Assembly (NCBI RefSeq): GCF_022763245.1
Contig: NZ_JALEGV010000012.1
Span: 620,001 to 684,000 of the forward strand
Direction of reading: 5' to 3'
DNA from: Oricola sp.
GTDB taxonomy: Bacteria; Pseudomonadota; Alphaproteobacteria; Rhizobiales; Rhizobiaceae
DNA: 64,000 bases
Positions 33,379 through 49,522 of this stretch are shown here, piece by piece (position 1 is the stretch's first letter; each line of letters begins with the position of its first letter). Under the pieces are notes generated by a model that saw only the letters and a list, made by a program, of their open reading frames with translations, was not told the origin of the DNA and made no database searches. A program made the translations under genes and the position numbers.

Positions 33379-35564
33379 GCCTGGGCTCCCGCGAGCGCCC
33401 GGGCCGCGGCCACGATCCCGTCGGCAGATGGCATAGTGGCGGCATAGGCAGGGCCGGTCGCGATGAAGCTGTCCTCCGCGCTCAGGCGGGCATGCGGCAC
33501 GTCCGTACGTTCCGTCAAAAGCGTCATCAAGGCTTCGGCGAGCCCGCCCGTGCGCCGTGTTTCGTCGACCACCAGCACATGCCGGCAACCCGAGACGGCC
33601 TCGAGGATCGCGTCCTCCGGCAGCGGCGAAAGCCAGCGAATGTCGATCACTCGCGCGGCGATCCCGTCAGCTTCCAGCCGTTTCTGTGCCTGACGCGACA
33701 GATAGGCCCCGTTGCCGAATGTCAGGATCGCCAGATCCTCGCCATTGCCGTGCTGACCGACCTCGCCGAAACCGATCCGCTCGGACGGGTCGGGGTAGCG
33801 CGTCAGCCAGCCCCCGTCGCCCGCCTCGTGCAGGTCTCGCATGGGATAGAGCGCAATCGGTTCGAGGAACACGACGAGCCGCTGCTCCTCGCGTGTCAGT
33901 CGCACGCATTCGCGAAGCATCATCGCCGCATCCGCCCCGTTCGACGGGCAAGCAAGGATGAGGCCCGGAATGTCACGCAACACGGCGACCGAATTGTCGT
34001 TATGGAAATGACCGCCGAACCCCTTCTGGTAGCCGAGGCCGGCAATCCGGACGACCATCGGGTTGGTGTATTGGCCGTTGGAGAAGAAAGGCAGCGTCGC
34101 CGCCTCGCCGCGCAATTGGTCCTCGGCATTGTGCAGATAGGCGAGAAACTGGATTTCGGGGATCGGCAGGAAGCCGTTATGGGCAAGCCCGATGCCCAGC
34201 CCGAGGATCGACTGTTCGTCGAGTAGCGTGTCGATCACGCGCGCCGAGCCGAAGCGCGCGATCAGTTTCTGCGTCACGCCATAGACCCCGCCCTTTCGGC
34301 CGACATCCTCGCCCATCAGCGCGATTTCGCCATGGGCGAGCATCACGTCGGTCAGCGCCCAGTTGATCAGGCGGGACATGATCTGCGGTTCGCCCATCGC
34401 TTTCAGATCGCCGCCGAAGGTCTCGGCGCGCGCTTCGGCGGTTGGACCGTTCGTCGGCCGGCAGGCGCGCGCCGGCGGAATGAGGCTCGCCATCACCTCG
34501 CTTGCCGTCTTCAGGCGCGGCCGGGTGACAGCCTCCTCCGCCACGCGTTCGACGCGGGAATTGGTCTCCTCGTAGATGGCCAGCGCCGCGGTGGGTTCGA
34601 GCGCTCCCGTCTCGGACAGCAGCCGAACCGAATGCAGCAGCGGATCGTTCGCCTCCTCGGCTTCCACTTCCTCGCGACGCATATAAGTCGTCGGCACGTC
34701 GGCGCCGGCATGGCCATAGAGGCGCACGGTGCGCATATGCAGGAACGCCGGCTTGCGCCGGGTGCGGACATAGGCGGCGGCTTCGGAGGCGACCTTGTAG
34801 GTGTCGTAGATGTCGAGGCCGTCGCTGGAGAAGTATTTCAGTCCGGGCCGGTGCGCGAAATTCGCGCTGATCCAGCCCTGCGGCGTCTTGGTCGAGATCC
34901 CGATGCCGTTGTCCTCGCAGACGAACAGAAGCGGCATCGGCACGGACTGGTAGCTCGTCCATTGCGCCGTGTTGAACGCGCCCTGCGCGGTGGAATGGTT
35001 CGCCGACGCATCGCCGAAGGAACACATGATGATCGCGTCGTCCGGCAGCGCCTTGTGCTCCGGCGGGTGCCTGCGGGCGAGCCCGAGCGAATAGGCCGCG
35101 CCGACCGCCTTCGGAAGATGACTGGCAATGGTCGAGGTCTGCGGCGGAATGTTCAGCGCCTTCGAGCCCAAGACCTTGTGCCGCCCGCCGGAGATCGGGT
35201 CTTCCGACGAACAGGCAAAGGACAGCAGCATGTCCCAGGTGATCGACTGGCCGGGAACCTGCTCGGCGCGCTGGATCTGGAAGGCCGCGTCCCGGTAATG
35301 CAGGAACGCCATGTCGGTCGGCCGAAGCGCGGCGGCGACGGCGGCCATGCCCTCATGACCGGACGAACCGATCGTGTAATAGCCCTGCCCCGCCGCCTGC
35401 ATGGCCCGGCTCTTGCGATCGAGCGCGCGGCACAGGCACGCGGACCGGTAGATCGAGACGGCCTGCGCCTGGCTCAAAGGACCTTCGGGCGCGCGGCCCG
35501 GCGGCAGATCCCCTGCCGCGACCCTGCGCAGGAAGTTCTCGTGGACGATCGACGAACGGTCCAT
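33375..35564 (-). CDS. fused alpha-beta E1 component of a 2-oxoacid dehydrogenase
   Basis: 729 residues with both halves of a thiamine-diphosphate E1 in one chain. The alpha part (about 1-360) has GSSGHEGMAAVAAALRP, HYRDAAFQI, and CSFGDASANHSTAQGAFN, the GD...N diphosphate motif. The beta part (about 385-729) has MGEDVGRKGGVYGVTQ, EIQFLAY and ETRRTGGLAEALM. Fused branched-chain-type E1 proteins are known in some bacteria. No E2 or E3 genes are seen in this window. With glutaryl-CoA dehydrogenase next door, 2-oxoadipate is a possible substrate, but branched-chain acids are equally possible. Confidence 0.85.
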   Translation of the reverse strand: MDRSSIVHENFLRRVAAGDLPPGRAPEGPLSQAQAVSIYRSACLCRALDRKSRAMQAAGQGYYTIGSSGHEGMAAVAAALRPTDMAFLHYRDAAFQIQRAEQVPGQSITWDMLLSFACSSEDPISGGRHKVLGSKALNIPPQTSTIASHLPKAVGAAYSLGLARRHPPEHKALPDDAIIMCSFGDASANHSTAQGAFNTAQWTSYQSVPMPLLFVCEDNGIGISTKTPQGWISANFAHRPGLKYFSSDGLDIYDTYKVASEAAAYVRTRRKPAFLHMRTVRLYGHAGADVPTTYMRREEVEAEEANDPLLHSVRLLSETGALEPTAALAIYEETNSRVERVAEEAVTRPRLKTASEVMASLIPPARACRPTNGPTAEARAETFGGDLKAMGEPQIMSRLINWALTDVMLAHGEIALMGEDVGRKGGVYGVTQKLIARFGSARVIDTLLDEQSILGLGIGLAHNGFLPIPEIQFLAYLHNAEDQLRGEAATLPFFSNGQYTNPMVVRIAGLGYQKGFGGHFHNDNSVAVLRDIPGLILACPSNGADAAMMLRECVRLTREEQRLVVFLEPIALYPMRDLHEAGDGGWLTRYPDPSERIGFGEVGQHGNGEDLAILTFGNGAYLSRQAQKRLEADGIAARVIDIRWLSPLPEDAILEAVSGCRHVLVVDETRRTGGLAEALMTLLTERTDVPHARLSAEDSFIATGPAYAATMPSADGIVAAARALAGAQA

Positions 35565-35571
35565 GCCGCCC

Positions 35572-36774
35572 TCAGAAGAACGCCTGCAGGCCGGTCTGCG
35601 CCCGGCCGAGGATCAGGGCGTGCACGTCATGCGTGCCTTCATAGGTGTTGACCGTTTCGAGGTTCGCCATGTGACGGAAAACCTGGAACTCCTCCGAGAT
35701 GCCGTTGCCGCCGTGCATGTCGCGGGCGGCCCGCGCGATGTCGAGCGCCTTGCCGCAATTGTTGCGCTTGATCAGCGAGATCATCTCCGGCGCGGCATTG
35801 CCCTCGTCCATCAGCCTGCCGACGCGCAGCGCCGCCTGCAGCCCGAGAGCGATCTCCGTCTGCATGTCGGCGAGCTTCTTCTGGAAGAGCTGCGTGCCCG
35901 CGAGCGGCTTGCCGAACTGCTTGCGGTCGAGCCCGTATTGGCGCGCCGCCTGCCAGCAGAATTCCGCCGCGCCCATCGCGCCCCATGCGATGCCGTAACG
36001 CGCCCGGTTGAGACAGCCGAACGGCCCCTTCAGCCCCTCGACATTCGGCAGCAACGCATCCTCGCCAACTTCGACGCCATCGAGGACAATTTCGCCGGTG
36101 ACGGAGGTCCGCAGGCTGAGCTTGCCGCCAACCTTCGGCGCGGACAGGCCCTTCATGCCCTTCTCCAGCACGAAGCCCCGGATCTTGCCGCCATGCGCCT
36201 CCGATTTCGCCCAGACGACGAAGACGTCGGCGATCGGCGCGTTGGAGATCCACATCTTCGAACCATTCAGCACATAGCCGCCATCGACCTTCGCCGCGGT
36301 GGTTTTCATGCCTCCGGGATCAGATCCGGCGTCGGGCTCTGTCAGCCCGAAACAGCCGATCCATTCGCCCGCCGCCAGTTTCGGCAGGTATTTCCTGCGC
36401 TGTTCCTCCGAGCCATACGCGTGGATCGGATACATGACGAGCGAGGATTGCACGCTCATCATAGAGCGATAGCCGGAATCGACACGCTCCACCTCGCGCG
36501 CGACGAGGCCATACGAGACGTAGCCAGCGCCCGCCCCGCCATATTCTTCCGGCACCGTCACGCCGAGCAGGCCCGTTGCGCCCATTTCGGCGAAGACCGA
36601 CGGATCGACCGTTTCCTCGCGATAGGCGTCGATGACGCGCGGCTGCAGCTTCTCCTGCGCATAGGCCGCGGCGGTGTCACGGATGAGGCGCTCTTCCTCG
36701 CCAAGCTGGTTCTCAAGGAGAAGCGCGTCCGGCCAGGAAAAGGCCGTCAGCGAAGGGCCGTGTCCGTCACTCAT
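35572..36774 (-). CDS. gcdH: glutaryl-CoA dehydrogenase-like acyl-CoA dehydrogenase
   Basis: 400 residues of the FAD acyl-CoA dehydrogenase family. [51 protein letters not shown] and the C-terminal catalytic Glu in [19 protein letters not shown] match glutaryl-CoA dehydrogenase, which oxidises and decarboxylates glutaryl-CoA to crotonyl-CoA in lysine and tryptophan breakdown. ATG 36774 has GGAAGGA 7 nt upstream. First gene of a three-gene unit with the fused E1 and FabD-fold genes (7-nt gap, then ATGA). Confidence 0.85.
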
Positions 36775-37202
36775 GATCAAATCCTTCCCGGGCCTCGCCG
36801 ATGCGCGTCAGGCCCGTCCTCACTTGTTCCTCCCGCCGGTGCACAGCGGCCCGAAACCGCTATTCCCACTCCATCATCTCTGAGACAAGTCGCTTCTTGT
36901 TTGTGCGACTGCTATTTCGTCCGGACAAGCCGCACCGCGAGAAACTCCTGAACAATTACAAACCGTTGAATTATATCGCTATTTCCAGGGGTCGCGTATT
37001 TTTTGTGACCTACCGATTCCAGAGAAAGTGGTACCAATAACCCATAGGACTGAAACCGCAGGACGGCCTGGATTCCCGATGGGCCTCCCCCTATCGAGGG
37101 AAGGAACTCCGTTCAATCCATCACCATCGCAGCAGGAAGCAATCCGGTCCACCGCTTCGATCTCGCGGGGAGGAATGAATGGGCCGGCGATGACAGAATG
37201 CG
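36775..37202. other. 428-bp gap holding one copy of an att-like repeat
   Basis: AT-richer sequence without a convincing gene. It includes the 14-bp repeat at 36866-36879 and the left edge of the malonate-type block. The promoter for gcdH should lie in the first 90 bp. No terminator hairpin was found for the ABC operon that ends at 37203. Confidence 0.5.
36866..36879 (-). repeat. left copy of att-like direct repeat
   Basis: TCCCACTCCATCAT occurs here and at 47821-47834 in the same orientation, bracketing the malonate-type block. Read on the minus strand each copy ends an open stretch coding (D/E)MMEWE-stop, similar to the end of GMP synthase genes (TIEWE-stop), a known target of site-specific integration. 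A 14-mer repeat alone is expected by chance in 64 kb, so position is the main argument. Confidence 0.35.
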
Positions 37203-38261
37203 CTAATGCATCTGCACTGCCTGCCGCTGGTCAAGGCTGACCCAGGGTGTGCTGCCGACCTCGAAGACCGCCGCAGGCGGAGCGACGGTCCGGATCGAAG
37301 TCGTCTCGCCCAGACGCACGGTGTAGTCCCAATACTCGCCGAGGAACGCGCGCTCGAGCACGGTCCCTTTCATCGCGGGTCCGTTGACAGTGGCGGGTTC
37401 CTGCACGTGCAGGGTGAAGGCCTGTGGGCGCATCGAGAACACTACGCCCGACTGCGGCGGCGGACTCTCGCAGCAGTCGGCCGGCAGGTTGAAGCCGTCG
37501 AATTCCAGCCGCTCGCCGGCAGGCCGTGCCTCCAGGAAGTTCGTGCGACCGATGAAGCTGGCGACGAACTTCGTCCTCGGCCGGTTGTAGAGTTCGAACG
37601 GGGACGCCACCTGCTCGATCTTGCCGTGGTTCATCACCGCGATCCGGTCCGAGGTCACCATCGCCTCTCCCTGGTCATGCGTGACGTAGACCGAGGTAAT
37701 GCGGAACTCGTCGTGGATGCGCTTGATCTCGAAGCGCATTTCCTCGCGCAGCGACGCATCGAGATTCGAGAGCGGTTCGTCCAGCAACAGGACCTCGGGA
37801 CGGATCACGACCGCACGCGCCAGCGCCACGCGCTGCTGCTGCCCTCCCGACAGTTCCGATGGATAGCGGTCCGCGAGCTGGTTCAGCCGCACGACCTCCA
37901 GGATTTCGCCCACCCGCTTGTTGATCTCCGCCGTGGGAAGCTTGCGCAGCTTGAGACCGAACGCGACGTTCTGTGCGACGGTCATGTTCGGCCAGATCGC
38001 ATAGCTCTGAAAGATCATAGACATGCCGCGCTTCTCCGGCGGCACCGTTCCGGCGGGCGTCGCCAGAACCCTGCCGTTGAGAGTGATCGCGCCCGACGTG
38101 GGTTCGAGAAATCCGGCGATCATACGCAGCGTGGTTGTCTTGCCGCAGCCCGAGGGGCCGAGCAGCGAGACGAACTCGCCTTCCTCAAGCACGAGATCAA
38201 GGTCGAGGACCGCATCGACAGCGCCGAACTTGCGGCCAAGTCGTTCCAGTTCCAGTCCCAT
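37203..38261 (-). CDS. ABC transporter ATPase, Fe3+/polyamine (FbpC/PotA) type
   Basis: 352 residues: Walker A GPSGCGKTTT near residue 37, FQSYAIWPNMTVAQNVAFGL, signature LSGGQQQRVALARA, Walker B VLLLDEPLSNLD and His-switch YVTHDQGEAM; then a C-terminal TOBE-like regulatory domain. It energises the permease encoded immediately upstream (TGATG overlap). The FbpC/PotA/UgpC families cannot be told apart by ATPase sequence alone, so the substrate is open. Confidence 0.9.
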   Translation of the reverse strand: MGLELERLGRKFGAVDAVLDLDLVLEEGEFVSLLGPSGCGKTTTLRMIAGFLEPTSGAITLNGRVLATPAGTVPPEKRGMSMIFQSYAIWPNMTVAQNVAFGLKLRKLPTAEINKRVGEILEVVRLNQLADRYPSELSGGQQQRVALARAVVIRPEVLLLDEPLSNLDASLREEMRFEIKRIHDEFRITSVYVTHDQGEAMVTSDRIAVMNHGKIEQVASPFELYNRPRTKFVASFIGRTNFLEARPAGERLEFDGFNLPADCCESPPPQSGVVFSMRPQAFTLHVQEPATVNGPAMKGTVLERAFLGEYWDYTVRLGETTSIRTVAPPAAVFEVGSTPWVSLDQRQAVQMH

Positions 38262-40003
38262 CAACTTCTCCTTACCATGAAATCCCTGCCAAGCAGGCGG
38301 ATGCCAAGCAGCACCATGATTGTGATGATGACCAGCAGCACGGAACCCAGCGCCGCCAGCTTTTCCATTTCGCCTTCCTCGGTCATGTCCAGGAGGACGA
38401 CCGAGACAACTCGGGTCTTCGGTCCGACGAGAAAGACCGCGGTGCTCAGCTCCTGGGCGGCCGGCACAAAAATCAGCAGCCAGCCGGCGGCCAGCGGTCG
38501 CTTCAGGAGCGGCGCGACCACCTTGCGGATCGCATAAAGCCGGCCACCGCCGAGAATCCGCACGGCTTCTTCCATCTCCGGATGGATGGCTCGCACGCCA
38601 GCCGACCCCGTCGTGTAGGCGATCGGTAGAAACCGGGTGACGAAGGCCAGCGCGAGGATCGTGTAGGTGCCGTACAGCGCCACCGGCGGAAGGGCGTAGA
38701 CCGAGTAGAACGCGATCGCCAGCACGATGCCCGGAATGACGAACGGCGCCATGCAGAGATAGCCCAGCACCCCCGGCATCGGCACCAGCTTACGCTGCAC
38801 GATGTAGGAAATGGACAGCGCCAGCAGCACGGCGAAGGTCGCCGCCACCGCGCCCAGCCCGAGGCTCGTGACGATGGCCTGCTGCGAGGTCGCGTGCTCG
38901 AAGAGAACGTAGTTGAAATTCTGGAGCGTCAGGTTCGACAGGGACAGGCCGCCGACCCAGGAACTGCTGAATGCCGCCATGAAGAGCACCAGCGCGGGCA
39001 TGGCGACGGACAGCGCCACGACGAAGGCGCTGTAGCCGAAGAGGACCCAGCGCCACGGGCCCAGCCGCACCATTCTGCGCTCGCCGCCCTTGCCGGTGAC
39101 TGCCGTATATCCCTTGCGTGACAGGATTAGCCGCTGCAGCAAGAGCAACACCGCCGTGATCAGCAAAAGCGGGATCGAATAGGCGGCGGCAGTCTCGATG
39201 CGCAGCGGATAGGAAAAGAACTCGGACAGCTGAATCACCACCACCGGGAAGCGCGCGGGGATCGAAATCAGCGCCGGTACCCCGTACAACGCGATACACA
39301 CCAGGAAAGTCAGCAGCGCGCTGCCCAGGATCGAGGGGAGCACCAACGGGAACGTTACCTTCCACGCCGTCTTGATCGGTCCGGCACCGAGGATGTTGGC
39401 CGCATCCTCAAGCTCGGAATTCAGCATCTCGAAGGCGGCGCTGATAAGAACGAACATCGTGAAGTAGAGGTTGATCGCCATCACCAGAACCAGCCCCTCG
39501 AAGCTGAAGATGTTGACGATGGAGGCCTCGCTGCCGGTCAGGCCCTGCCAGGCACGGTTGAGCCAGCCTGAATTCGGCCCCGCCAAAAGGATCCAGCCGA
39601 TGCCGCCAAGATAGGGCGGTATGATGAAGGCGCCGAACACGCCCGCCCGGATGAAGGACTTGAACGGCATATCTGTACGGGAACAACCCCAGGCCAGCGG
39701 CAGGGCGAAGGCGAGGCTCAGCGCCACGACGGCGACGCCCATGTAGAGCGTGTTGACCAGCGCCTGCACGTGCCGTGCCTTGCCATAGGCGTCGATATAG
39801 TTCGCGACGGTGAATCCGCCTGTCGCGGGATCCGTGAAGCTCTTGACGATCAGCGCGGTCAGGGGCGCGACGATCAGCACGACCAACACCAGACTCATGC
39901 CGATGAAGACGAGACTGCTTGGTTGAAACCGGTTCAGAAGTCCGACACGTGGCCTGGCGGCTGCGCCGCCATAGGCGACGTTCGTCGAAGTCGTGGTCGA
40001 CAC
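38261..40003 (-). CDS. ABC transporter permease, fused two-domain FbpB type
   Basis: 580 residues from GTG 40003 (GAGGAG 9 nt upstream), with about 12 helices in two homologous halves, each carrying an EAA-like loop (NSELEDAANILGAGPIKTAW and HPEMEEAVRILGGGRLYAIR). This is the usual build of FbpB/SfuB and 2-aminoethylphosphonate permeases. It overlaps the ATPase gene and lies 70 bp after the binding-protein gene. Confidence 0.9.
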   Translation of the reverse strand: MSTTTSTNVAYGGAAARPRVGLLNRFQPSSLVFIGMSLVLVVLIVAPLTALIVKSFTDPATGGFTVANYIDAYGKARHVQALVNTLYMGVAVVALSLAFALPLAWGCSRTDMPFKSFIRAGVFGAFIIPPYLGGIGWILLAGPNSGWLNRAWQGLTGSEASIVNIFSFEGLVLVMAINLYFTMFVLISAAFEMLNSELEDAANILGAGPIKTAWKVTFPLVLPSILGSALLTFLVCIALYGVPALISIPARFPVVVIQLSEFFSYPLRIETAAAYSIPLLLITAVLLLLQRLILSRKGYTAVTGKGGERRMVRLGPWRWVLFGYSAFVVALSVAMPALVLFMAAFSSSWVGGLSLSNLTLQNFNYVLFEHATSQQAIVTSLGLGAVAATFAVLLALSISYIVQRKLVPMPGVLGYLCMAPFVIPGIVLAIAFYSVYALPPVALYGTYTILALAFVTRFLPIAYTTGSAGVRAIHPEMEEAVRILGGGRLYAIRKVVAPLLKRPLAAGWLLIFVPAAQELSTAVFLVGPKTRVVSVVLLDMTEEGEMEKLAALGSVLLVIITIMVLLGIRLLGRDFMVRRS

Positions 40004-40073
40004 TGGGTAGGCTCCTCGTGGTTCGCCGCTTTGGGAGAGGGGAGCGCGGCCGAACCGCGCTCCCGAAGGGTCG

Positions 40074-41123
40074 TCAGATTCCGAAGGTTTCGCGGAACTT
40101 CTCGGTGGTCGGACCGACCTTTTCGGCGGCGGTGCCCGGATTGGCCGTGATCATCGGCGTGTTCGCGAGAGAGGGCACGCCGTCTGCCGTCGGCACGTCG
40201 CTGCGCAACGGAAAGCGGTGGGCGTCGGCGAGCATCTGCGCCGCTTCCTTGCCGAGCAGGAACTCCTCGAAGAGCTTTCCGGCGTTCGGGTGCGGTGCGG
40301 CGGCGAGCAGGCCGGTACCGCTCGGAGGCAGCATCAACCCGTCCTCGGGCACGACGATGTCGACCGGCTTGCCGCCCATCTTTCCGCCGAGACCGAGCGT
40401 AATCGGCGCGATGGCGACCTTGCGCTCGCCCGACACGACGAGGTTGTAGCCGTCCGAGACCGAACGGCCGATCTGCGGCTTGTTGGCCTCGAGTTTTTCG
40501 AAATACTCCCAGCCATAGGCCTCTTCAACCGCCACGGTGAACATGCTCATGCTGCCCGAAAAGCCCGGATGGGCAATGGCCAGCTGATCCTTCCATTTCG
40601 GATCGAGCAAGTCGTTCCAGGTCTTCGGCGCTTCGTCCGCAGGGACCAGATCGGTGTTGTAAACGATCCCGTACGGCGAGATGTTTGAGGCGTACCAGTA
40701 TCCGTCCTGGTTGCCGGCCGCCTTCATCGACGGAAGCATGTGTTCGAGATTGTGGGGCTTGTAGGCCGCAAGTGCGTCGGCCTTCAGCATCTCGACGAAG
40801 TCGGTGTCGTCGTTCGAGGAATAGACATCGCCCTGCACGGCGTTCGCCTGCACTTCCTGCATGACGCGCTGGAACGTGACGCTGCCGGTGGCGCGGATCG
40901 CGTCACAGGTCACGTCGGGATAACGCTTTGCGAATTCCGCGCAGATCGCGTTGGCCATTTCGCTGGTGGTCTGCGAAACATACCACACCACGCCGCCCTC
41001 TTCTTTGGCCGCGTCATAGAGCTCCTGCTCCCATGGCTCATAGCTCTGGGCCGAGGCCGGCATCGACGCGAGGCCGGCGCAGATGGCCGCCGCCGCGGCG
41101 AATGTCTTGGTCGCAAATTTCAT
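40074..41123 (-). CDS. ABC transporter substrate-binding protein
   Basis: 349 residues with signal peptide (MKFATKTFAAAAAICAGLAS, cleavage near ASAQS). Class II periplasmic binding fold of the FbpA/thiamine/phosphonate cluster: GGVVWYVSQTTSEMANAICA, NISPYGIVYNTDLV, WNDLLDPKWKDQLAIAHP and GYNLVVSGERKVAIAP. The paired tyrosines of classical ferric-binding proteins were not recognised, so iron is not a safe guess. The next gene upstream encodes a GntR regulator, linking it to the reductase-like genes. Confidence 0.85.
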   Translation of the reverse strand: MKFATKTFAAAAAICAGLASMPASAQSYEPWEQELYDAAKEEGGVVWYVSQTTSEMANAICAEFAKRYPDVTCDAIRATGSVTFQRVMQEVQANAVQGDVYSSNDDTDFVEMLKADALAAYKPHNLEHMLPSMKAAGNQDGYWYASNISPYGIVYNTDLVPADEAPKTWNDLLDPKWKDQLAIAHPGFSGSMSMFTVAVEEAYGWEYFEKLEANKPQIGRSVSDGYNLVVSGERKVAIAPITLGLGGKMGGKPVDIVVPEDGLMLPPSGTGLLAAAPHPNAGKLFEEFLLGKEAAQMLADAHRFPLRSDVPTADGVPSLANTPMITANPGTAAEKVGPTTEKFRETFGI

Positions 41124-41180
41124 GTCTTCCTCCCTGGTTGTCATGGATTGGCCAAAGGCCGTTGGACTGAATCTATGCCC

Positions 41181-41909
41181 TCAACGCGTGGCTTGCCGTG
41201 CGCCGACCGGCTCGCTGCCGACCGGACCCGACGAAATCGCCATCAGGAAATCGCTGAAGGAATCTCCCTGGACGATGATGTGCTGGCGCATCAGTTCGTC
41301 GGCGCGGTTCGGGTCGCGCGCCCGAAGCGCCTCGATCACCGAATTGTGCTCGGAGGCGGAATGCGCCAGCCGGTTCGGCACCCGCAACTGCAGGCGGCGG
41401 AAGGGCTTCAGCCGGGTGTGCAACTGCCCGGCTATCTGGGCCAGATACTTGTTGCCGCTGGAATCGTAGAGGTGCCGGTGGAACAGTTCGTTGGCGTAAT
41501 AGTAGTCGTCCGCCGCCTGCCGCTCGCAGGCCGCCATGCAATCGGCTTGCAGCGCCTCCAGCACCGCCAGGCTCTCATCGGTCATCCGGCGCGCCGCCAG
41601 ACGAGCGCACATGCCCTCAAGCTCCGCCATGACCTCGAACATGCCGATCAGGTCGGCCATCGTGACCTCGTTGACGAAACAGCCCTTGTTCGGAATCCAC
41701 TGGACCAGCCCCATCGCGCTCAACTGCATCAGCGCCTCGCGGATCGGCGTACGCGAGACTGAATGCCGGTTGGCGAGTTCCGTCTCGTCCAGCCGGGCGC
41801 CGGGCGGATAATGACCGCTGACGATATCCTGCTCGATGGCTTCCCGCAGATGTCCGGCCCGGCCGCTGCGGCCCGTCGCGTTCTGCTTGTTCTGTCCGTT
41901 CGTGCTCAT
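41181..41909 (-). CDS. GntR family regulator, FCD subgroup, MatR-like
   Basis: 242 residues: winged helix (LREAIEQDIVSGHYPPGARL, VSRTPIREALMQLSAMGLVQ, about 20-85) and FCD domain (ANELFHRHLYDSSGNKYLA, ASEHNSVIEALRARDPNRAD, MRQHIIVQGDSF) with its metal His residues. It is coupled by ATGA overlap to the thioredoxin reductase-like gene. Malonate operons of rhizobia are controlled by an FCD regulator, MatR, that binds a TTGTATACA-type palindrome; such sites lie in the divergent gap at 44.6-44.8 kb. Confidence 0.88.
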   Translation of the reverse strand: MSTNGQNKQNATGRSGRAGHLREAIEQDIVSGHYPPGARLDETELANRHSVSRTPIREALMQLSAMGLVQWIPNKGCFVNEVTMADLIGMFEVMAELEGMCARLAARRMTDESLAVLEALQADCMAACERQAADDYYYANELFHRHLYDSSGNKYLAQIAGQLHTRLKPFRRLQLRVPNRLAHSASEHNSVIEALRARDPNRADELMRQHIIVQGDSFSDFLMAISSGPVGSEPVGARQATR

Positions 41910-42847
41910 GCCGCGACCTCCTCGAGAGTATGCGCCGACGTGACGGCGCGATGGGCCGATATTGCGGCAGTCGCACCCTCTCCCGCCGCGGCAGAGAGAA
42001 GGCTCACCGCGCCCGCGCGGATGTCGCCCGCAGCGAAGACCATCGGATGCGAGCTTTGCAGATCGCCATCGGTCCGGATGCGGCCATCGGCGTCCAACTC
42101 CAGCAAGCCGCCAAGAAAGTCGGTGTTCGGATCAAGGCCCAGATAGAAGAACACGCCGTCCGCGGCGACGGTTTCGACCTCACCGCTCACGGTGTCGCAC
42201 AGCCGGACCGCCGTCAGGCCGCCTTCGCCTTCCAGCGCCTCCACGGTGGTGTTGGGTCTTTGAACGATGTTGTCGCGCGCATCCGCTTCGGCGACCGCCC
42301 GCTGCTGGGCCCGGGGCGCGTCGCTCCGATAAGCCAGGATCACTGTGTTCGCGTAGTCCGACAGCACCGCCGCCTCGTCGAAGGCCGAGTCGCCCCCGCC
42401 GACGACAACGGCCGCGCGGTCCCGAAGAAGCGGACCGTCGCAGGAGGCGCAATGCGAAACGCCGCGCCCCTCGAGCGCTTCCTCACCGGGAAGCCCCGAC
42501 TTTCGACGGCTCGAACCCGCCGCCACGATCACAGCCCGGCACGAGACGTCTCCGTCGTCGCAGGAAACGGTCAGCCCGTCCTCCGACCCGACGATCCCGA
42601 TAACCGACGCCAGCCGCATCTCGGCCCCGAACGCCTCGGCCTGCTCCTGCAGAAGCGGGCCGAGCTCGATCCCCGAGATCGGTTCCGGAAAGCCGGGGAA
42701 ATTGCTGATCCGGTCCACCGTCATCACCTGACCGCCCACGCCCATCGAATCGATGACCAGCGTATGCGAACCCAGCCGCGCCGCCGTCGCGGCGGCGGTC
42801 AGCCCGGCCACGCCGGCACCGATGATGATGATGTCGTAATCCGCCAT
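41906..42847 (-). CDS. thioredoxin reductase-like flavoprotein
   Basis: 313 residues with FAD motif DIIIIGAGVAGLTAAATA, redox pair SHCASCDG (Cys near 134 and 137), NAD(P) motif VVVGGGDSAFDEAAVL and FAD-closing MVFAAGDIRAGAVSLL. Typical low-molecular-weight thioredoxin reductase length. No thioredoxin gene adjoins. It starts 7 nt after the UGSC-like gene, so the two are probably a functional pair with the flavoprotein reducing its neighbour's dithiol. Confidence 0.88.
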   Translation of the reverse strand: MADYDIIIIGAGVAGLTAAATAARLGSHTLVIDSMGVGGQVMTVDRISNFPGFPEPISGIELGPLLQEQAEAFGAEMRLASVIGIVGSEDGLTVSCDDGDVSCRAVIVAAGSSRRKSGLPGEEALEGRGVSHCASCDGPLLRDRAAVVVGGGDSAFDEAAVLSDYANTVILAYRSDAPRAQQRAVAEADARDNIVQRPNTTVEALEGEGGLTAVRLCDTVSGEVETVAADGVFFYLGLDPNTDFLGGLLELDADGRIRTDGDLQSSHPMVFAAGDIRAGAVSLLSAAAGEGATAAISAHRAVTSAHTLEEVAA

Positions 42848-42854
42848 CGCCGCC

Positions 42855-44525
42855 TTACCGCCAATCATCGATCAGGACGGTCGCCTGCGGGCGAGCGCCA
42901 TAGATCTGCCAGTAACCGTTGGTTTCTCCGCCCACCACGACAACGGTGATCTCTTCCTTGCGGAACATGTTGATCATCGCGTCATCGCCTTCGGCGAGCC
43001 GCTCCGCGAAGGGCGCGTCGCCGAATGTGGCGAGCGGGTAGATGTAGTTCTGCACGAGCTGCAGGTCCCAGTATTCGCTCGCCTTCATCCGTGCGGTTTC
43101 GTGGAGCCAGTCGATGAGGTCCTGCTTCTTTGCGAATCCGCCGCGGCTGACGAATTGCCGCGCGACGATCGGGTCGAGGACCAGGACCGGAGCAGTGATC
43201 GCATCCGTGCCGCGCAGCATGTGGCCGATATGCTCGCGCCAGTGCTTCTCGCGCAGACCGAGATTGTTGGTGTTGGACCGGCAGCCCCAGAATATCGAGA
43301 CGGTGCTCTGCTCTGGCTTGTATCCCTTCTGCACATGCAGAGGTTCCCACGGCGACCGCTCTTCGTTTTCGGCGAAAGTCAGGCCGGTGTAGAGATAGTT
43401 GTTGCCGAGCGACCCCATGTAGCTCTCGCCAGGCACCGACCCGCCTTGAAGATTTTGCGAAAGCAGGCTGTACGCCCGTCCGATGGTCGTGTTGGCGTGA
43501 TTGTACGGGCCGAGCGCGCCCAGCCCGCAATTCATGCCGATCTCCTTGCGGATGGGGCCGTTGACGATGCTCATCGTCGCCGCCGAGCTGGAAGAGCTCG
43601 ACCGCGCGCTATAGCTCGCCGCGGCCTGCGCGAGGATCACCGGGAAATATTCCGGCGTCGCCCCCGCCATGACCGCGTTTACGGCGACGTTTTCGACGGT
43701 ATAGCTCCACAGCCCGCGGTTCTTTGTCGGCTGCATGCGCCCGACGATCTCGTCCGGCTTGCGGCTTGTACCCGCCAGCATCTCCGCCACCCGCTCTTCT
43801 GTCGGCGGGACGATCGGCAACTGGTCGGTCCAGTGATTGCTGCGGAACAACTCCTGCACCGCCGCCTCAGATTCCGCCGAGATCACGCGCGTGCGCTCGA
43901 TTGCCGGCGCTCCGATCTGGCTCGCATCGGGCTGAGGCAGGGCCTTGGTCAGCCCGTCGACGATTTCGCGCATGACGCCGTTGCCGGTCACCGGATCGTC
44001 GCCCTTCACATAGTCGGCCAGTTCGGCCGGCGTCTTGCCCATCACCGGCTGCGGCACGAAGACGAGCGGCGCCTGCGGCAGGCCCGCCATGCGGGTGACC
44101 GACCGGACGACGCGCACGAACTTCTCCGTATGCACGGCGACCGTCGGCACGCCGTACTTCGTTTCCAGCGTCACCGCATGGGTCGAAACGGCGGGCGCGC
44201 AGGTGCTGCAATGCCCGACCCCGATGATGGCGGCATGACCCTGGTCGCGAATTTCTTCCCAAAGCTCCGGGTCGTCCTTGGCGTAGGTGCTGGCCAACTG
44301 CACCAGCTTCGTCCGGACGCTGGGCATCTGTTCGGCGAACCAGAGCTGGATCTGCTTAAGCAACTCGATGGAATCGTCGAACCGGCTGTCGATCAGGTAA
44401 ACAAGCTTGTCATTCAGACTGTCGAGCCGGGGAGCGGCATCCTTGCCCGTCACCTTCGGCGGCGTGCCGCGCGGATCGAGCACAGCAATTCCGCCGTCTC
44501 TCGTCGTGGCGCTTCTGTCGAGCAT
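42855..44525 (-). CDS. UGSC (seleno)protein family member with Cys in place of Sec
   Basis: 556 residues, ATG 44525 behind GGGAGG. The N-terminal domain (about 1-220) contains IIGVGHCSTCAPAVSTHAVT, with Cys106 and Cys109 at the position of the U-G-S-C redox motif of the UGSC family, followed by VPTVAVHTEKF. A second domain (about 235-556) has QLPIVPPTEERVAEMLAGT, a serine run (ARSSSSSSAATMSIVNGP) and NCGLGALGPYNHAN. No family function is established. Coupling to a thioredoxin reductase-like gene supports a thiol-dependent reductase; the second domain might bind the substrate taken up by the ABC importer. Confidence 0.7.
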   Translation of the reverse strand: MLDRSATTRDGGIAVLDPRGTPPKVTGKDAAPRLDSLNDKLVYLIDSRFDDSIELLKQIQLWFAEQMPSVRTKLVQLASTYAKDDPELWEEIRDQGHAAIIGVGHCSTCAPAVSTHAVTLETKYGVPTVAVHTEKFVRVVRSVTRMAGLPQAPLVFVPQPVMGKTPAELADYVKGDDPVTGNGVMREIVDGLTKALPQPDASQIGAPAIERTRVISAESEAAVQELFRSNHWTDQLPIVPPTEERVAEMLAGTSRKPDEIVGRMQPTKNRGLWSYTVENVAVNAVMAGATPEYFPVILAQAAASYSARSSSSSSAATMSIVNGPIRKEIGMNCGLGALGPYNHANTTIGRAYSLLSQNLQGGSVPGESYMGSLGNNYLYTGLTFAENEERSPWEPLHVQKGYKPEQSTVSIFWGCRSNTNNLGLREKHWREHIGHMLRGTDAITAPVLVLDPIVARQFVSRGGFAKKQDLIDWLHETARMKASEYWDLQLVQNYIYPLATFGDAPFAERLAEGDDAMINMFRKEEITVVVVGGETNGYWQIYGARPQATVLIDDWR

Positions 44526-44624
44526 GCAAAACCTCCCACTGCACATCCCTGCCCTTCGATGAAGGCCCGGATCCGGTTTGACGATAGGCACAAACTCGCC
44601 CTCACGCAACACAATAACGACAAG

Positions 44625-44636
44625 ATTGCATACAAT
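44625..44636. promoter_or_regulatory. MatR-type operator candidate, UGSC side
   Basis: ATTGCATACAAT, a near-perfect palindrome of the TTGTATACAA type, about 100 bp upstream of the UGSC-like gene in the 367-bp divergent gap. It is the likely binding site of the FCD regulator encoded two genes downstream. Confidence 0.55.
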
Positions 44637-44764
44637 TCGATATCGATGGCATGCATACCGTCATAAATGGAGGGAAACCTCCCCGACTCACACCCAACCC
44701 GAGAGACGACGCCAAGCCCGAAATTTCCGACAGGATCGGGCTAGTTCCGCATTTCAGCGCCTTC

Positions 44765-44811
44765 CATACGCCCGCGTTATGGCGTATCGTCTGAAAAATA
44801 TTGTATACACA
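44765..44811. promoter_or_regulatory. operator and inverted repeat upstream of malonyl-CoA decarboxylase
   Basis: ATTGTATACACA (44800-44811) contains TTGTATACAC, which as I recall is the core of the rhizobial MatR operator. Just left of it is an inverted repeat ATACGCC/GGCGTAT (44766-44787). Both lie 80-130 bp before the decarboxylase start. Together with the site at 44625 this suggests shared control of the divergent genes. Confidence 0.55.
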
Positions 44812-44892
44812 TATCGTGTTTCGGAATACAAAACCGATCTGTTTGCACTCAGAAAATTGACCCCTGACGCCCGTTGAAAACCGAGAGTCGCG

Positions 44893-46137
44893 ATGAGTTT
44901 CCTCGCCGAGATCATGTCTACGCTGTTTGACCGGAGGCTCGGGCAGCGGATCGAAATCGGCGGCGATGACCGGTCGATCGAGGACATCTGCCAGGCGCTC
45001 GCGAATTCCGCCGCGGAGTCTTCCGCGGCCGTTCTGGGTGGCAGCATCCTCGGAAAATATGAGGAACTCGACGATACGGGAAAGCTCGCCTTCTTCCGCT
45101 TCATCGCCCACGAAATGACCATCGACGCGGATCGCGTGCGGGAAGCGCTCGCCCTTCTCGAAAAGGGCGCCACGCGCGAAACTTACGGCGCGTTCATGGA
45201 AGCCGTCGAGCCGCCGCGCCAGGAGCTCATCCGTCGGATCAACCGGGTGCCGAACGCGACCGGGAAACTCGTCCGCATGCGGCAGGACCTGCTGCGCCTC
45301 GGATCCGGCGAACCGGACCTCCAGGCGCTGGACCTCGATTTCCGCCACCTCTTCGCGTCCTGGTTCAATCGCGGCTTCCTGGTGCTGCGGCGGATCAGCT
45401 GGGAGAGCCCGGCTCATATCCTCGAGAAGATTATCGCCTACGAGGCCGTCCACGCCATCGACAGCTGGGATGAACTGAGGCGTCGTCTGGAGCCGCCGGA
45501 CCGGCGCTGCTTTGCATTCTTCCACCCGGCCATGCCGGATGAACCGCTGATCTTCGTCGAGGTCGCCCTGACGAGCGGCGTCCCCGGCAACATTCGGACG
45601 TTGCTCGCCGACGACCGTGAGCGCCTGAGGCCCGAGGATGCCGACACCGCCGCCTTCTATTCAATTTCCAACTGTCAGGCCGGCCTCTCCGGCATCTCCT
45701 TCGGCAATTCACTGATCAAGCAGGTCGCGGCCGATCTTTCCATGGAACTGCCGGCCCTGAAGACTTTCGTCACGCTCTCGCCGATCCCCGGGCTCTGCAA
45801 GTGGTTGGAGCAGATGGGCGCGGCATTGGGGCCCGACGACGACCTCATCCTGCGGGCAGCCGCCCGCTATATTCTGACAGCCAAACGCACGGACGGCCTG
45901 CCGCTTGATCCGGTGGCGCGGTTTCATCTCGGCAACGGGGCCGAGGTGCATGCGGTGCATGCGGGCGCAGACCTCTCGCCCAGGGGACAGGAGCAGTCCG
46001 CAGGCGCGATGGTGAACTATCTCTATGACCTGCCGAAGGCCTCGCAGAACCAGGAGCGGTTTGCCGCCGCCGGCAGGATCGCCGCCTCCGCACAGGTGAA
46101 ATCACTGGCCGCTGCGGCATTCGAATTGCAGACCTGA
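44893..46137 (+). CDS. matA: malonyl-CoA decarboxylase
   Basis: 414 residues of the MCD family, which converts malonyl-CoA to acetyl-CoA and CO2. A helical N-terminal domain (about 1-130) precedes the GNAT-like catalytic domain with FFHPAMPDEPLIFVEVAL, YSISNCQAGLSGISFGN (conserved Ser), TLSPIPGLCKWL and VARFHLGNGAEVH (catalytic His). Length matches bacterial MatA (about 410-460). The malonyl-CoA synthetase gene follows 9 nt later, an operon order seen in rhizobial mat loci. Confidence 0.92.
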   Translation: MSFLAEIMSTLFDRRLGQRIEIGGDDRSIEDICQALANSAAESSAAVLGGSILGKYEELDDTGKLAFFRFIAHEMTIDADRVREALALLEKGATRETYGAFMEAVEPPRQELIRRINRVPNATGKLVRMRQDLLRLGSGEPDLQALDLDFRHLFASWFNRGFLVLRRISWESPAHILEKIIAYEAVHAIDSWDELRRRLEPPDRRCFAFFHPAMPDEPLIFVEVALTSGVPGNIRTLLADDRERLRPEDADTAAFYSISNCQAGLSGISFGNSLIKQVAADLSMELPALKTFVTLSPIPGLCKWLEQMGAALGPDDDLILRAAARYILTAKRTDGLPLDPVARFHLGNGAEVHAVHAGADLSPRGQEQSAGAMVNYLYDLPKASQNQERFAAAGRIAASAQVKSLAAAAFELQT

Positions 46138-46146
46138 GGAGAGCCA

Positions 46147-47700
46147 ATGCCCAATCCACTTTACGACCGGCTGTTCGGACGCCACGCAGGCAGGACGACG
46201 CCGTTCCTGCATCTCCCCGACGGCACGGCGGTCAGCTACGCGGACTTCCTCTCCGACGCCGCCCGGATGGCGAACGTGCTGGTCCAACGCGGCCTCGAAC
46301 CGGGCGATCGGATCGCGGCCCAGGTCGAAAAGTCGCCGGACGCGCTCGCTCTCTACGCAGCCTGCGTTCAGTCCGGCATCATATTCCTGCCGCTGAACAC
46401 TGCCTACACGACCGAGGAGCTGGCGTATTTCGTCGAGGACAGCGGATCGCAGCTCGTGGTCTGCGACAGCGGCAAGGAAGCCCAGCTCACGGATATGGCA
46501 GAAGCCCTCGGCGCAAGCATCATGACGCTTGACGCGAACGGCACCGGCACGTTCGCCGAAGCGGCGAATACCATGCCGTCGACATTCGCGACCGCGCCTC
46601 GCGAGACGAACGACATCGCCGCCCTCCTCTACACTTCGGGCACCACTGGCCGCTCCAAGGGCGCCATGCTGACCCAAGGCAATTTGCTGTCGAATGCCGA
46701 AACGCTGGTGGAGTGCTGGCGCTTCGATCAAGACGACGTGCTTCTGCACGCGCTGCCGATTTTTCACACACACGGGCTTTTCGTCGCGACGAATGTCGTT
46801 CTGATGGCCGGCGGATCGATGATTTTCCTGCCCAAGTTCGACGTCGATGACATCATCGGCCAGCTTCCCGCTGCGACGTCGATGATGGGCGTGCCGACCT
46901 TCTACACGAGGCTCCTCGACCATCCCCGGCTGACGCCAGACCTGGTCGCCCATATGCGGCTCTTCACCTCCGGCAGCGCCCCGCTCCTGTCCGAAACCCA
47001 TGTCCGCTTCGAAAAGGCGACCGGCCATAGAATCCTCGAACGATACGGCATGACCGAGACCAACATGAACACGTCCAACCCGTATGAGGGCGAGCGGCGT
47101 GCCGGCACGGTCGGGTTTCCCCTGCCCGGCGTCGAGTTGAAGATAACGGATCCCGAAACCGGGGAGGAGCTCGCCCAGGGCCAAGTAGGCCAGATCGAGG
47201 TACGCGGTCCGAACGTTTTTGCCGGCTACTGGCAAATGCCCGAAAAGACAGCCGCAGAGCTGCGCGACAACGGGTTTTTCATCACCGGAGACCTCGGCCG
47301 GATCGACGAGGACGGTTATGTCCACATCGTCGGGCGAAACAAGGATCTGATCATTTCCGGCGGGTACAATATCTATCCGAAGGAAATCGAATTGATTCTC
47401 GATGAACAGCCTGGCGTCATCGAGAGCGCCGTGATCGGCGTACCGCACGCGGACTTTGGCGAATCGGTGGTTGGGTTGATCGTGCCCAAGCCCGGGGAAA
47501 CGCCGGATCTGGAGGCGATCAAGTCAGCGGTCGGAAACCGCCTCGCCCGTTTCAAGCAGCCCCGGAAACTGCTGCTCTTGGACGATCTGCCGCGTAACAC
47601 CATGGGCAAGGTCCAGAAGAATGTCCTGCGCGACGCCTACAGCAAACTGTTCATGGATGAACCGGCTGCTCGGCAGGACGTTGAGGCCGGCTCCAAGTGA
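46147..47700 (+). CDS. matB: malonyl-CoA synthetase MatB
   Basis: 517 residues of the acyl-adenylate family: P-loop YTSGTTGRSKGAMLTQGNL, ERYGMTETNMNTSNPYEGER, ITGDLGRIDEDGYVHIVGR and C-terminal Lys in NTMGKVQKNVLRD. The TETNMN variant with downstream Arg residues is as in MatB, which activates malonate or methylmalonate. GAGGAG lies 5 nt before the ATG. No MatC carrier follows; uptake may depend on the ABC system across the divergent promoter. Confidence 0.92.
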   Translation: MPNPLYDRLFGRHAGRTTPFLHLPDGTAVSYADFLSDAARMANVLVQRGLEPGDRIAAQVEKSPDALALYAACVQSGIIFLPLNTAYTTEELAYFVEDSGSQLVVCDSGKEAQLTDMAEALGASIMTLDANGTGTFAEAANTMPSTFATAPRETNDIAALLYTSGTTGRSKGAMLTQGNLLSNAETLVECWRFDQDDVLLHALPIFHTHGLFVATNVVLMAGGSMIFLPKFDVDDIIGQLPAATSMMGVPTFYTRLLDHPRLTPDLVAHMRLFTSGSAPLLSETHVRFEKATGHRILERYGMTETNMNTSNPYEGERRAGTVGFPLPGVELKITDPETGEELAQGQVGQIEVRGPNVFAGYWQMPEKTAAELRDNGFFITGDLGRIDEDGYVHIVGRNKDLIISGGYNIYPKEIELILDEQPGVIESAVIGVPHADFGESVVGLIVPKPGETPDLEAIKSAVGNRLARFKQPRKLLLLDDLPRNTMGKVQKNVLRDAYSKLFMDEPAARQDVEAGSK

Positions 47701-48176
47701 ATGCCCACTTGGCGTTCCCTGATTGCAGCCGGTCAACGGAAGCCGAAAGTAGGAAAGAAAAATCGTCGGCGCAACGTCCGTACGTCGGCCTTGACTGAAG
47801 ACCGTTCAGGTTCCCCTTACTCCCACTCCATCATATCTCAAAGTTATAACTGTTTGATTTCATAAGCGGTTTTCGCGCAGGCAAACTCGCGTACCGGCAG
47901 AAATACCGTCGAAACTTAAGTGATTGTTTTGACATCGTTTTTCGATATTCACGTTTCCGTGAGCAACATTAGGTTTGTGCAATCAAACCCACTGTTTCAA
48001 GTTCTGCACTTGACCTTACAGCTTTGCGTTCTGGTTGCGAGAGCGCGCAACCACCGATACCGACATTCATTACTAGTGGTCATCTAATACGCAACCTGGC
48101 CCCGAGAACTCATGTCACCATCGGTTCGAAGGAAGATCGTATGCCTAGGTGCCAGGACCAATGAACAGAACGAGAC
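47701..48176. other. 476-bp gene-free junction region
   Basis: AT-richer than its left neighbour, no open frame with plausible coding character. It contains the right copy of the att-like repeat and leads into insertion-sequence remnants. No terminator hairpin for matAB was recognised. Confidence 0.5.
47821..47834 (-). repeat. right copy of att-like direct repeat
   Basis: TCCCACTCCATCAT, identical to 36866-36879. On the minus strand it reads ATGATGGAGTGGGAGTAA, coding MMEWE-stop. The copies are 10.9 kb apart and bracket the ABC/UGSC/mat block; no integrase gene is seen between them. Confidence 0.35.
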
Positions 48177-48676: not shown

Positions 48677-49522
48677 TTAAGGGATGTTCCATTCAACCCG
48701 CATGAAATAGCGCACCATGCCGGCGAACGGCTGCGGCGCGTGCGTCATGTCGTGCATGATATCCTGGACGTCATCGCGCACGCTGCCTGTCGCCACATCG
48801 GCGATGTTCTTAAGTTTCAGCAGTCTCTCGTACGTCTGCCAGCGCAGGAACAGAAGCTCGTCGCGATTGAGGTCGATTACATTTTCAGCCGCTTTAGCCG
48901 CGGCCTGCGCCTTGGGACTTGCGTCGCGCGCCTTGATCCATACCTCCTGCAGAACTTCGTCGGCCTCCCAAGCGAACAAGGGTTCGGGATCGACGTAGTA
49001 TGGATTGGGTAGATCGCCTTGCTCTTGGGTGGCTAGTTGGATGAACTGTGCCACCATCGCTGTATCGCGCGGTTCCGGCACGGTTGCCTCCGCTAGCGCC
49101 AGGATTTGCGCTTCGGTCATGTTTTGCGCAAAAATGGGCGCCGGCACGCGATTACCGGAAAAGCCGTGCGTATTGCTTTTCTTGCCGTTGCACACGCGGC
49201 AACTGAAGAGGAAGTTCTCATAGCAATAGGCCATCCACCAATAAGCGGACTTAGGCCGGAAATGCTCAATATCGCCGAAATAGACCGCCGATGTCGGCGT
49301 TTCGCAAAACGCACATTTACCCGACGTTTCTGCCTGAAGCTGCGGCTTTGCTTTCTTCCAGCGGCTGGAAGAGAAGAGCTTTTTCTTGACCGCCGTATCG
49401 CCGAGCGTGCCGTTAAAGGCCTCGGTGAAAAGCTCTTTCAGGTCATCCCTACGATCGGGGTCAAGGAAGCTTGAATGTATGGCCGTGCGATCGTGTGTGA
49501 GGCTGATCATGTCCGACCTCAC
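48677..49522 (-). CDS. HNH endonuclease, PtuB-like partner of an AAA ATPase
   Basis: 281 residues from a GTG that overlaps the ATPase stop (GTGA); ATG 49510 is an alternative with AGG 6 nt upstream. Zinc-ribbon HNH features are present: CAFCETP near residue 70, DIEHFRPKSAYWWMAYCYEN with the catalytic His, and CRVCNGKKSNTHGF. The C-terminal half (about 150-281) is helical. Such HNH proteins pair with AAA ATPases in Septu and as effectors of some retrons. No reverse transcriptase is here, so a stand-alone Septu-like anti-phage pair is the best reading. Confidence 0.78.
   Translation of the reverse strand: MRSDMISLTHDRTAIHSSFLDPDRRDDLKELFTEAFNGTLGDTAVKKKLFSSSRWKKAKPQLQAETSGKCAFCETPTSAVYFGDIEHFRPKSAYWWMAYCYENFLFSCRVCNGKKSNTHGFSGNRVPAPIFAQNMTEAQILALAEATVPEPRDTAMVAQFIQLATQEQGDLPNPYYVDPEPLFAWEADEVLQEVWIKARDASPKAQAAAKAAENVIDLNRDELLFLRWQTYERLLKLKNIADVATGSVRDDVQDIMHDMTHAPQPFAGMVRYFMRVEWNIP

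What the first reader, a model, noticed from the sequence alone, without database searches (positions are those of the whole stretch)
36880..47820. Malonate operon joined to a UGSC-family/thioredoxin reductase pair and an ABC importer
Seen: malonyl-CoA decarboxylase and synthetase on one strand; divergent from them a Cys-type UGSC-family protein, a thioredoxin reductase-like protein, an FCD-GntR regulator and a binding-protein ABC importer. Known: malonate loci usually have MatR, MatA, MatB and a MatC carrier; UGSC proteins have no assigned role. Inference: the importer brings in a compound that the thiol pair cleaves reductively, in the manner of glycine reductase, leaving malonate for MatB/MatA. 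I know of no described pathway with this gene set.
Basis: partly seen in the sequence, partly recalled or inferred. Interest (0 to 1): 0.7.

Follow-up and report, generated by a model that had tools for sequence, protein, structure and literature searches.

The report
Malonate genes joined to thiol reductase
A bacterial gene cluster links ordinary malonate-breakdown genes, under apparently shared control, to an importer and to an enzyme related to one part of selenium-dependent glycine reductase, which hints at an undescribed route that reduces some small acid to malonate.

Summary
MCD, MatB and UGSC trees indicate that the coupling arose twice (AU p 1.8e-5 and 0.0016). The cluster's GntR groups with mat-locus GntRs, and TGYATAC sites lie before both the mat and the UGSC genes.

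The UGSC protein has two domains. The N-terminal one resembles the selenocysteine domain of GrdB/PrdB (hhalign 94%, P 1e-7; 11 other sets at most 8%), with CxxC in register with UxxC; for the C-terminal domain no relative was found. A Sec paralogue in the same genome lies in a UGSC-selD-TrxR-selA-selB-tRNA-Sec island.

Best reading: an imported malonate-like acid, probably 2-substituted, is cleaved reductively to malonate, then MatB/MCD. Module and co-regulation are well supported; a thiol reductase is likely; substrate and product are inferred. Against: the module also occurs without mat genes (L097), and Aminobacter lacks MCD.

The parts
37203..38264 (-). ABC importer ATPase
   Evidence: PF00005 + TOBE_2; 64-67% identical to the copies in the Neorhizobium/Rhizobium clusters and L097
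38261..40003 (-). ABC importer permease, two permease units fused
   Evidence: PF00528, two stretches; 67-71% identical in the other full clusters and L097 (the frame-broken copy in L004 left aside)
40074..41144 (-). periplasmic binding protein of the importer
   Evidence: PF13343 SBP_bac_6; weak PDB matches named Fe3+-type periplasmic components, a PLP-binding protein and a putative 2-AEP-binding protein
41181..41909 (-). GntR/FCD regulator, MatR-like by tree
   Evidence: PF00392 + PF07729; in one clade with GntRs of ordinary mat loci, apart from the other GntR rows sampled
41906..42868 (-). thioredoxin-reductase-like flavoprotein with CASC
   Evidence: PF07992; TIGR01292 280.7 bits, below cut-off 343.45; the 44 PDB rows are 41 thioredoxin reductases and 3 AhpF; sequence
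42855..44525 (-). two-domain UGSC protein, Cys form (likely start ATG 44525; longest frame runs to 44612)
   Evidence: PF24696; start from GGGAGG here and before homologues; model pLDDT 83.7
44007..44483 (-). UGSC domain, related to the Sec domain of GrdB/PrdB
   Evidence: PF24696 residues 44-202; hhalign with a GRDB profile 94.2%
44199..44210 (-). CSTC redox motif; its first Cys stands at the Sec position
   Evidence: 13 of 23 homologous loci have a single in-frame TGA here, 10 have Cys
42858..43892 (-). C-terminal domain, no Pfam match and no solved relative found
   Evidence: no Pfam match at E<=1; Foldseek no match at E<=0.001
44624..44637 (+). operator-like site GATTGCATACAATT
44649..44662 (+). 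operator-like site GCATGCATACCGTC
44799..44812 (+). operator-like site TATTGTATACACAT
44893..46137 (+). malonyl-CoA decarboxylase (MatA), short subfamily
   Evidence: PF05292 + PF17408; positions 148-192 of PF05292 unmatched, a like gap in G758, G762, G802, G851
46147..47700 (+). malonyl-CoA synthetase (MatB)
   Evidence: PRK07514 822.5 bits, cut-off 558

Best explanation
The eight genes form one catabolic unit under a MatR-like regulator. Proposed flow: the ABC importer takes up a small acid; the two-domain UGSC protein holds it in its C-terminal domain; the Cys (Sec in relatives) of the GrdB-like N-terminal domain removes a substituent reductively; the neighbouring Cys closes a disulfide; the TrxR-like flavoprotein reopens it with NAD(P)H, directly or through a thioredoxin; malonate is released, activated by MatB and decarboxylated by MCD to acetyl-CoA. 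Shown here: gene set, recurrence, two joinings with mat genes, operator-like sites before both parts, regulator kinship, kinship of the UGSC domain to the GrdB/PrdB Sec domain, frequent pairing with TrxR. Inferred: the reductive reaction, a 2-substituted malonate (for example amino- or halomalonate) as substrate, malonate as product.
For: Same eight genes collinear in L011, L013, L014, L015, L016, L019, L029 (7 of 23 loci) and in N. galegae records. Two joinings: one-clade test MCD p 1.8e-5, MatB p 0.0016; UGSC tree needs 2 changes, 0% of 200 bootstrap trees give 1. Same-genus G802 has mat genes beside a GntR and a TRAP importer (DctQ by Pfam) and no UGSC match. TGYATAC: 6 strand matches in the 64-kb window, 4 of them (3 places) in the 280-bp UGSC/MCD gap; a pair before MCD and a pair in the MatB-UGSC gap in all 7 full loci. 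GntR clade with mat-locus GntRs; MatR serves as a malonate biosensor in R. leguminosarum (PMC11683335, passage). UGSC domain against GRDB profile 94.2%, P 1.1e-7, reverse 95.4%, P 1.7e-8; 11 other sets (9 unrelated, plus GrdE and GrdC) at most 8.1%, P >= 0.0042. TrxR-like gene beside UGSC in 11 of 23 loci. Precedent: a GrdB/GrdE-like operon with its own transporter is proposed for fluoroacetate reduction (PMC10838667, passages).
Against: 12 of 23 loci have no TrxR match beside UGSC, some of them cut by contig ends. L097 has UGSC-TrxR-GntR-ABC without MatA/MatB beside it, and L009 and L012 have Cys-type UGSC without mat genes beside it (MCD elsewhere in the genomes of L097 and L012, none found in that of L009), so malonate need not be the family's product. 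G967 and G1057 (Aminobacter type) have no MCD match. The profile match to GRDB leans on few sequences; single ones score from 1.7% to 85.1%. The thioredoxin-like stretches fused to the C-terminal domain are below Pfam cut-offs. The one-clade tests were named after the trees had been seen and rest on quick trees. No ligand, activity or expression data. The seven full loci are close relatives and count as few events.
Confidence: 0.45

Rival explanations
1. Protection: the importer brings in malonate itself (in place of the TRAP carrier), while UGSC and TrxR reduce a reactive or toxic companion compound, or keep thiols reduced, and do not make malonate.
For: In same-genus G802 the mat genes lie beside a TRAP importer, which the window locus lacks; S. 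meliloti matPQM is a malonate TRAP carrier (PMC5237526, passage). TrxR pairing fits a general reductase.
Against: UGSC carries its own large conserved domain with many invariant residues, and elsewhere UGSC genes sit among catabolic genes with several kinds of carboxylate carrier (others by eye), which fits a substrate enzyme better.
Confidence: 0.25
2. Shared regulation only: UGSC-TrxR-GntR-importer degrades some other acid, and it came to lie beside mat genes because its MatR-like regulator and operators already suited them.
For: The module exists without mat genes beside it in L097; regulator and site type are those of mat loci.
Against: Two joinings, and a MatB clade that in this sample holds only UGSC-linked rows (10 rows, 100*), fit a metabolic link; regulation alone would not need adjacency.
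Confidence: 0.2
3. Chance neighbours.
For: Outside the Neorhizobium/Rhizobium and Aminobacter-type loci the mat link was seen only in the window.
Against: Recurrence, two joinings and sites before both parts.
Confidence: 0.04

Closest known systems
Rhizobial mat operons (matRABC; matPQMAB with TRAP importer; PMC5237526, passages)
   Same: MatA, MatB and a GntR regulator of the same clade
   Different: the carrier is an ABC importer and two redox genes (UGSC, TrxR-like) are added
Glycine / D-proline reductase component B (GrdB, PrdB; PF07355) and the far operon for fluoroacetate
   Same: UGSC domain aligns with the Sec domain, C/U-x-x-C in register; a dedicated transporter in far (PMC10838667, passages)
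   Different: Cys instead of Sec; no GrdA, GrdC, GrdD or GrdE among the eight genes; second domain unlike the GrdE and GrdC tested; PF07355 itself not found in this genome
UGSC family (seleno)proteins, PF24696 / NF041046
   Same: PF24696 above cut-off; 13 of 23 homologues carry TGA at the same codon
   Different: fused C-terminal domain (a UGSC/'Unknown_1' fusion is noted in PMC2398784, passages; that it is the same domain is my guess); below the NF041046 cut-off. In the passages I saw of three of the eight papers listed no role is assigned
Selenocysteine island in the same genome (L003)
   Same: UGSC 51% identical and a TrxR-like neighbour
   Different: Sec form with SelA and SelB (Pfam), a selD-like AIRS protein and tRNA-Sec; no mat genes; an FmdA/AmdA amidase and Urt-like importer genes (by eye) nearby

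Membership tests
rhizobial mat operon | malonyl-CoA decarboxylase | tested here: met
   PF05292 309.2 bits, cut-off 23.2
rhizobial mat operon | malonyl-CoA synthetase | tested here: met
   PRK07514 822.5 bits, cut-off 558
rhizobial mat operon | MatR-type GntR regulator | tested here: inconclusive
   groups with mat-locus GntRs (18 rows, 99*), but only GntRs of the fetched loci were sampled
rhizobial mat operon | MatC or MatPQM carrier | tested here: not met
   ABC importer in the cluster instead
glycine reductase | GRDB (PF07355) protein | tested here: not met
   no PF07355 match in the genome (the control genomes did not ring either); UGSC is a relative at profile level only
glycine reductase | GrdA/GrdC/GrdD/GrdE partners | tested here: not met
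   none among the eight genes by Pfam and NCBIfam; C-terminal domain against one GrdE 0.3%, one GrdC 0.1%; the rest of the genome was not searched for them
UGSC family | PF24696 domain | tested here: met
   84.6 bits, cut-off 25
UGSC family | NF041046 equivalog cut-off | tested here: not met
   54 bits, cut-off 125
thioredoxin reductase | TIGR01292 cut-off | tested here: not met
   280.7 bits, cut-off 343.45; CxxC present
2-aminoethylphosphonate importer PhnS2/T2/U2 | TIGR03261/03265/03262 cut-offs | tested here: not met
   88.8 of 392.75; 355.3 of 457.7; 159 of 593.25
reductive lyase | NAD(P)H-dependent cleavage activity | not testable with these tools
   needs protein

The most novel reading that the evidence does not exclude
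UGSC/C-terminal-domain proteins are a broad, undescribed class of selenol or thiol reductases for small organic acids: a GrdB-like redox domain coupled to a new substrate domain, driven by TrxR, with substrates differing from cluster to cluster. It would explain why some members of this family of bacteria carry the genes for selenocysteine in one island with a UGSC gene (whether these genomes have other selenoproteins was not tested), and in the window it would supply malonate.
Probability: 0.4. Interest if true: 0.85.

Novelty: new variant of a known kind. Interest (0 to 1): 0.66.

Why it matters
UGSC-containing proteins were among the most abundant predicted selenoproteins in the Global Ocean Sampling metagenomes (PMC2398784, passages), and a 2026 review lists them among families whose functions remain largely uncharacterized (PMC13188914, passages). 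This locus ties a Cys form to a known downstream pathway and a known type of regulator, which turns an open question (what do UGSC proteins do?) into a short list of growth, binding and enzyme tests. If right, GrdB-like chemistry is not confined to anaerobic fermenters (that rhizobia are aerobes is recalled; that bacterial selenoenzymes such as glycine reductase are mostly of anaerobic metabolism is in PMC10298544, passages).

Tried and rejected
Solved relatives of the whole UGSC protein: none (phmmer, best E 0.61; Foldseek, none at E<=0.001). C-terminal domain alone: none at E<=0.001; the top 22 rows are all fumarate hydratases, but with TMq 0.21-0.27 and rmsd 15.7-18.1, so not used as evidence. 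C-terminal domain as GrdE or GrdC: no match (one sequence of each). 2-aminoethylphosphonate importer: below cut-offs. Single-origin mat coupling: rejected. A hairpin after the TGA was folded for nine Sec-type sequences; the structures were not alike, and I draw nothing from it. Further genes shared by the window and eight loci: none showed, but that script also failed to list two known shared genes (TrxR, ATPase), so it is a weak test. Literature, open-licence library only: 'UGSC family' 0 papers; UGSC + malon* 0; malonate + glycine reductase + selenocysteine 1 review; MCD + MatB + rhizobi* + ABC transporter 0; UGSC + selenoprotein 8. The listings show no title on this gene set.

Limits: the MCD and MatB trees are quick trees with some long branches. 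Rows dropped by me before the trees: MCD six (L004, L100, L095, L093, L094, L064), MatB four (L004, L100, L095, L098), as duplicates or fragments; hits under 250 bits (MCD) and 440 bits (MatB) were not taken. The UGSC tree used 26 sequences and left out L026, L027, L028, L030 and the distant ones. The GntR tree lacks the UGSC-cluster GntRs of L013, L016, L097 and L099 and the mat-locus GntRs of L083 and L089, which the ORF step did not deliver; five further loci (L004, L020, L095, L098, L100) were left out by hand as duplicates. My notebook says 12 of 23 loci with TGA; the recount gives 13.
Full report
Observation. The eight genes exist as described. UGSC, TrxR-like, GntR, binding protein, permease and ATPase lie on the minus strand with short overlaps; MCD and MatB lie divergently on the plus strand. 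The UGSC protein most likely starts at ATG 44525.

Recurrence. A scan of genome contigs with an alignment of three UGSC proteins gave 23 loci. Of these, 7 (L011, L013, L014, L015, L016, L019, L029; Neorhizobium and Rhizobium) hold MCD-MatB-UGSC-TrxR-GntR-SBP-permease-ATPase in one direction; 8 of 23 hold a MatB match near UGSC of 59% identity or more (the 7 plus Aminobacter L010; L023 has two AMP-ligases of 27-28%); and 11 of 23 hold a TrxR-like gene beside UGSC. N. galegae plasmid records show the same set, one of them with broken frames. Among other genomes, L099 repeats the Aminobacter form, MatB-UGSC-TrxR-GntR followed by another carrier (PF03547 in L010) and a TctA gene (PF01970 in L010), and L097 has the six-gene UGSC-to-ATPase module without mat genes beside it. 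MatB of L010, L011 and L099 passes the PRK07514 cut-off. UGSC matches are rare: 7 of 397 genomes drawn from the order, 5 of 398 from the phylum and 15 of 394 from the family, own genome and partial matches included, so lateral transfer is likely.

Two joinings. The own genome has one MCD gene (two pieces of one match). It is nearest to that of G802, a genome of the same genus (64% identity; MatB 71%), where the mat genes lie with a GntR and a TRAP importer (DctQ PF04290; rest by eye) and where no UGSC match was found. The MCDs and MatBs of the Neorhizobium/Rhizobium clusters form other clades, and Aminobacter MatB joins theirs. Holding all UGSC-linked rows in one clade is rejected for MCD (9 rows against 36, p 1.8e-5) and MatB (11 against 32, p 0.0016); the groups were named after the trees were seen. 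In the UGSC tree of 26 proteins the window is sister to Pseudoruegeria L009, which has no mat genes beside it (100/99), and the mat label needs two changes; 0% of 200 bootstrap trees give one.

Regulation. The window GntR and seven UGSC-cluster GntRs lie in one clade (99*) with ten GntRs of mat loci, apart from eight other GntR rows of the fetched loci (two of these the same gene); the UGSC-side group itself has support 89. TGYATAC is found 6 times (strand matches) in the 64-kb window, 4 of these at 3 places in the 280-bp UGSC/MCD gap; a first-order Markov model expects 2.65 in the whole window and 0.04 in the gap, where 0 of 2000 draws reached 4. In each of the 7 full clusters a pair lies before MCD and a pair in the MatB-UGSC gap, 4 of the 5-6 sites in each locus; in L010 and L099 a pair lies before MatB, a single one before UGSC and a palindrome upstream of a gene that resembles TctC only weakly (PF03401 E 0.006 in L010); in L009 two places lie between a like gene (E 0.0035) and the likely UGSC start; in L097 two lie before UGSC. 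L012, where no such GntR was found, and L017 have none there. Mat loci L087, L088 and L089 carry the same kind of site just before their GntR, so the site belongs to this regulator type. MatR is the GntR regulator of malonate use in R. leguminosarum (PMC11683335 and PMC5237526, passages).

Enzyme. The UGSC protein consists of a PF24696 domain and a C-terminal domain of about 345 residues with no Pfam match at E<=1 and no Foldseek match at E<=0.001, whether in the whole model (pLDDT 83.7) or alone (pLDDT 85.3). Of the 23 loci, 10 have Cys at the active position and 13 have one in-frame TGA there (column invariant). The domain aligns with a profile of one GrdB (L110, with GrdE- and GrdC-like neighbours named by eye) and four PrdB-like proteins (named by PF07355 and by eye): 94.2%, P 1.1e-7, with U/C-x-x-C in register; 11 other sets reach at most 8.1%. 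Single sequences score from 1.7% to 85.1%, so the kinship rests on the profile. In L008 the two domains are separate genes (PF24696 157.9 bits in one). In L044, L046 and L051 the C-terminal domain bears a thioredoxin-like CxxC stretch by eye; Pfam gives thioredoxin-type models at E 0.019 (L044) and 0.01 (L046), below cut-offs, and only TraF at 0.25 for L051. A TrxR above cut-off (403 bits) lies close by in L046. The Cys forms are nested among Sec forms in the tree.

The sister in the same genome. L003 holds a Sec-form UGSC 51% identical to the window's, then a selD-like AIRS protein, a TrxR-like gene, SelA, SelB and tRNA-Sec. No SECIS claim is made.

Mechanism. By analogy to glycine and D-proline reductase (thiol-driven reductive cleavage of a C-N bond, PMC10298544, passages) and to the proposed GrdB/GrdE-like fluoroacetate reductase with its own transporter (PMC10838667, passages), I propose reductive removal of a substituent from an imported malonate-like acid, recharged by the TrxR-like protein. 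Carboxylate-type carriers near other UGSC genes support small acids as substrates: Tct and TRAP in plasmid annotations, SDF in L046 and PF03547 in L010, TctA in L010, others by eye. A haloalkane dehalogenase lies 3 kb from UGSC in L012 (381.9 bits, cut-off 241); one case, no more than a lead. The binding protein's weak PDB relatives do not settle a ligand.

Against. The module lives without mat genes beside it in L097, Cys-type UGSC without them in L009 and L012 (MCD elsewhere in the genomes of L097 and L012, none found in that of L009), the Aminobacter-type genomes have no MCD match, and the seven full clusters are close kin. The module and its co-regulation I hold likely (about 0.85), a thiol reductase about 0.65, and malonate as its product about 0.45.

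Noticed in passing
window 48677-50805 (-): PtuA-like ATPase and PtuB-like protein, a Septu-type candidate defence pair
   Followed up: partly
L003 10161-17523: selenocysteine island in the same genome: Sec-form UGSC, selD-like, TrxR-like, SelA, SelB, tRNA-Sec
   Followed up: partly
window 44893-46137 and genomes G758, G762, G802, G851: MCD subfamily that skips about 35-45 positions of PF05292
   Followed up: no
L110: GrdB with GrdE- and GrdC-like neighbours (by eye) in a Deltaproteobacteria MAG that also has a UGSC protein
   Followed up: no
window 42858-43892 (model md079cef062ba): weak but uniform Foldseek resemblance of the C-terminal domain to fumarate hydratases, then to barbiturase-type hydrolases
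   Followed up: no
window 32350-36780 (-): by eye: malonyltransferase-like, fused 2-oxoacid dehydrogenase E1 and acyl-CoA dehydrogenase genes beside the cluster
   Followed up: no
L005: UGSC gene with an in-frame TGA at the Sec position on an Acidovorax IncP plasmid, near IS1071 and an aroA gene
   Followed up: no
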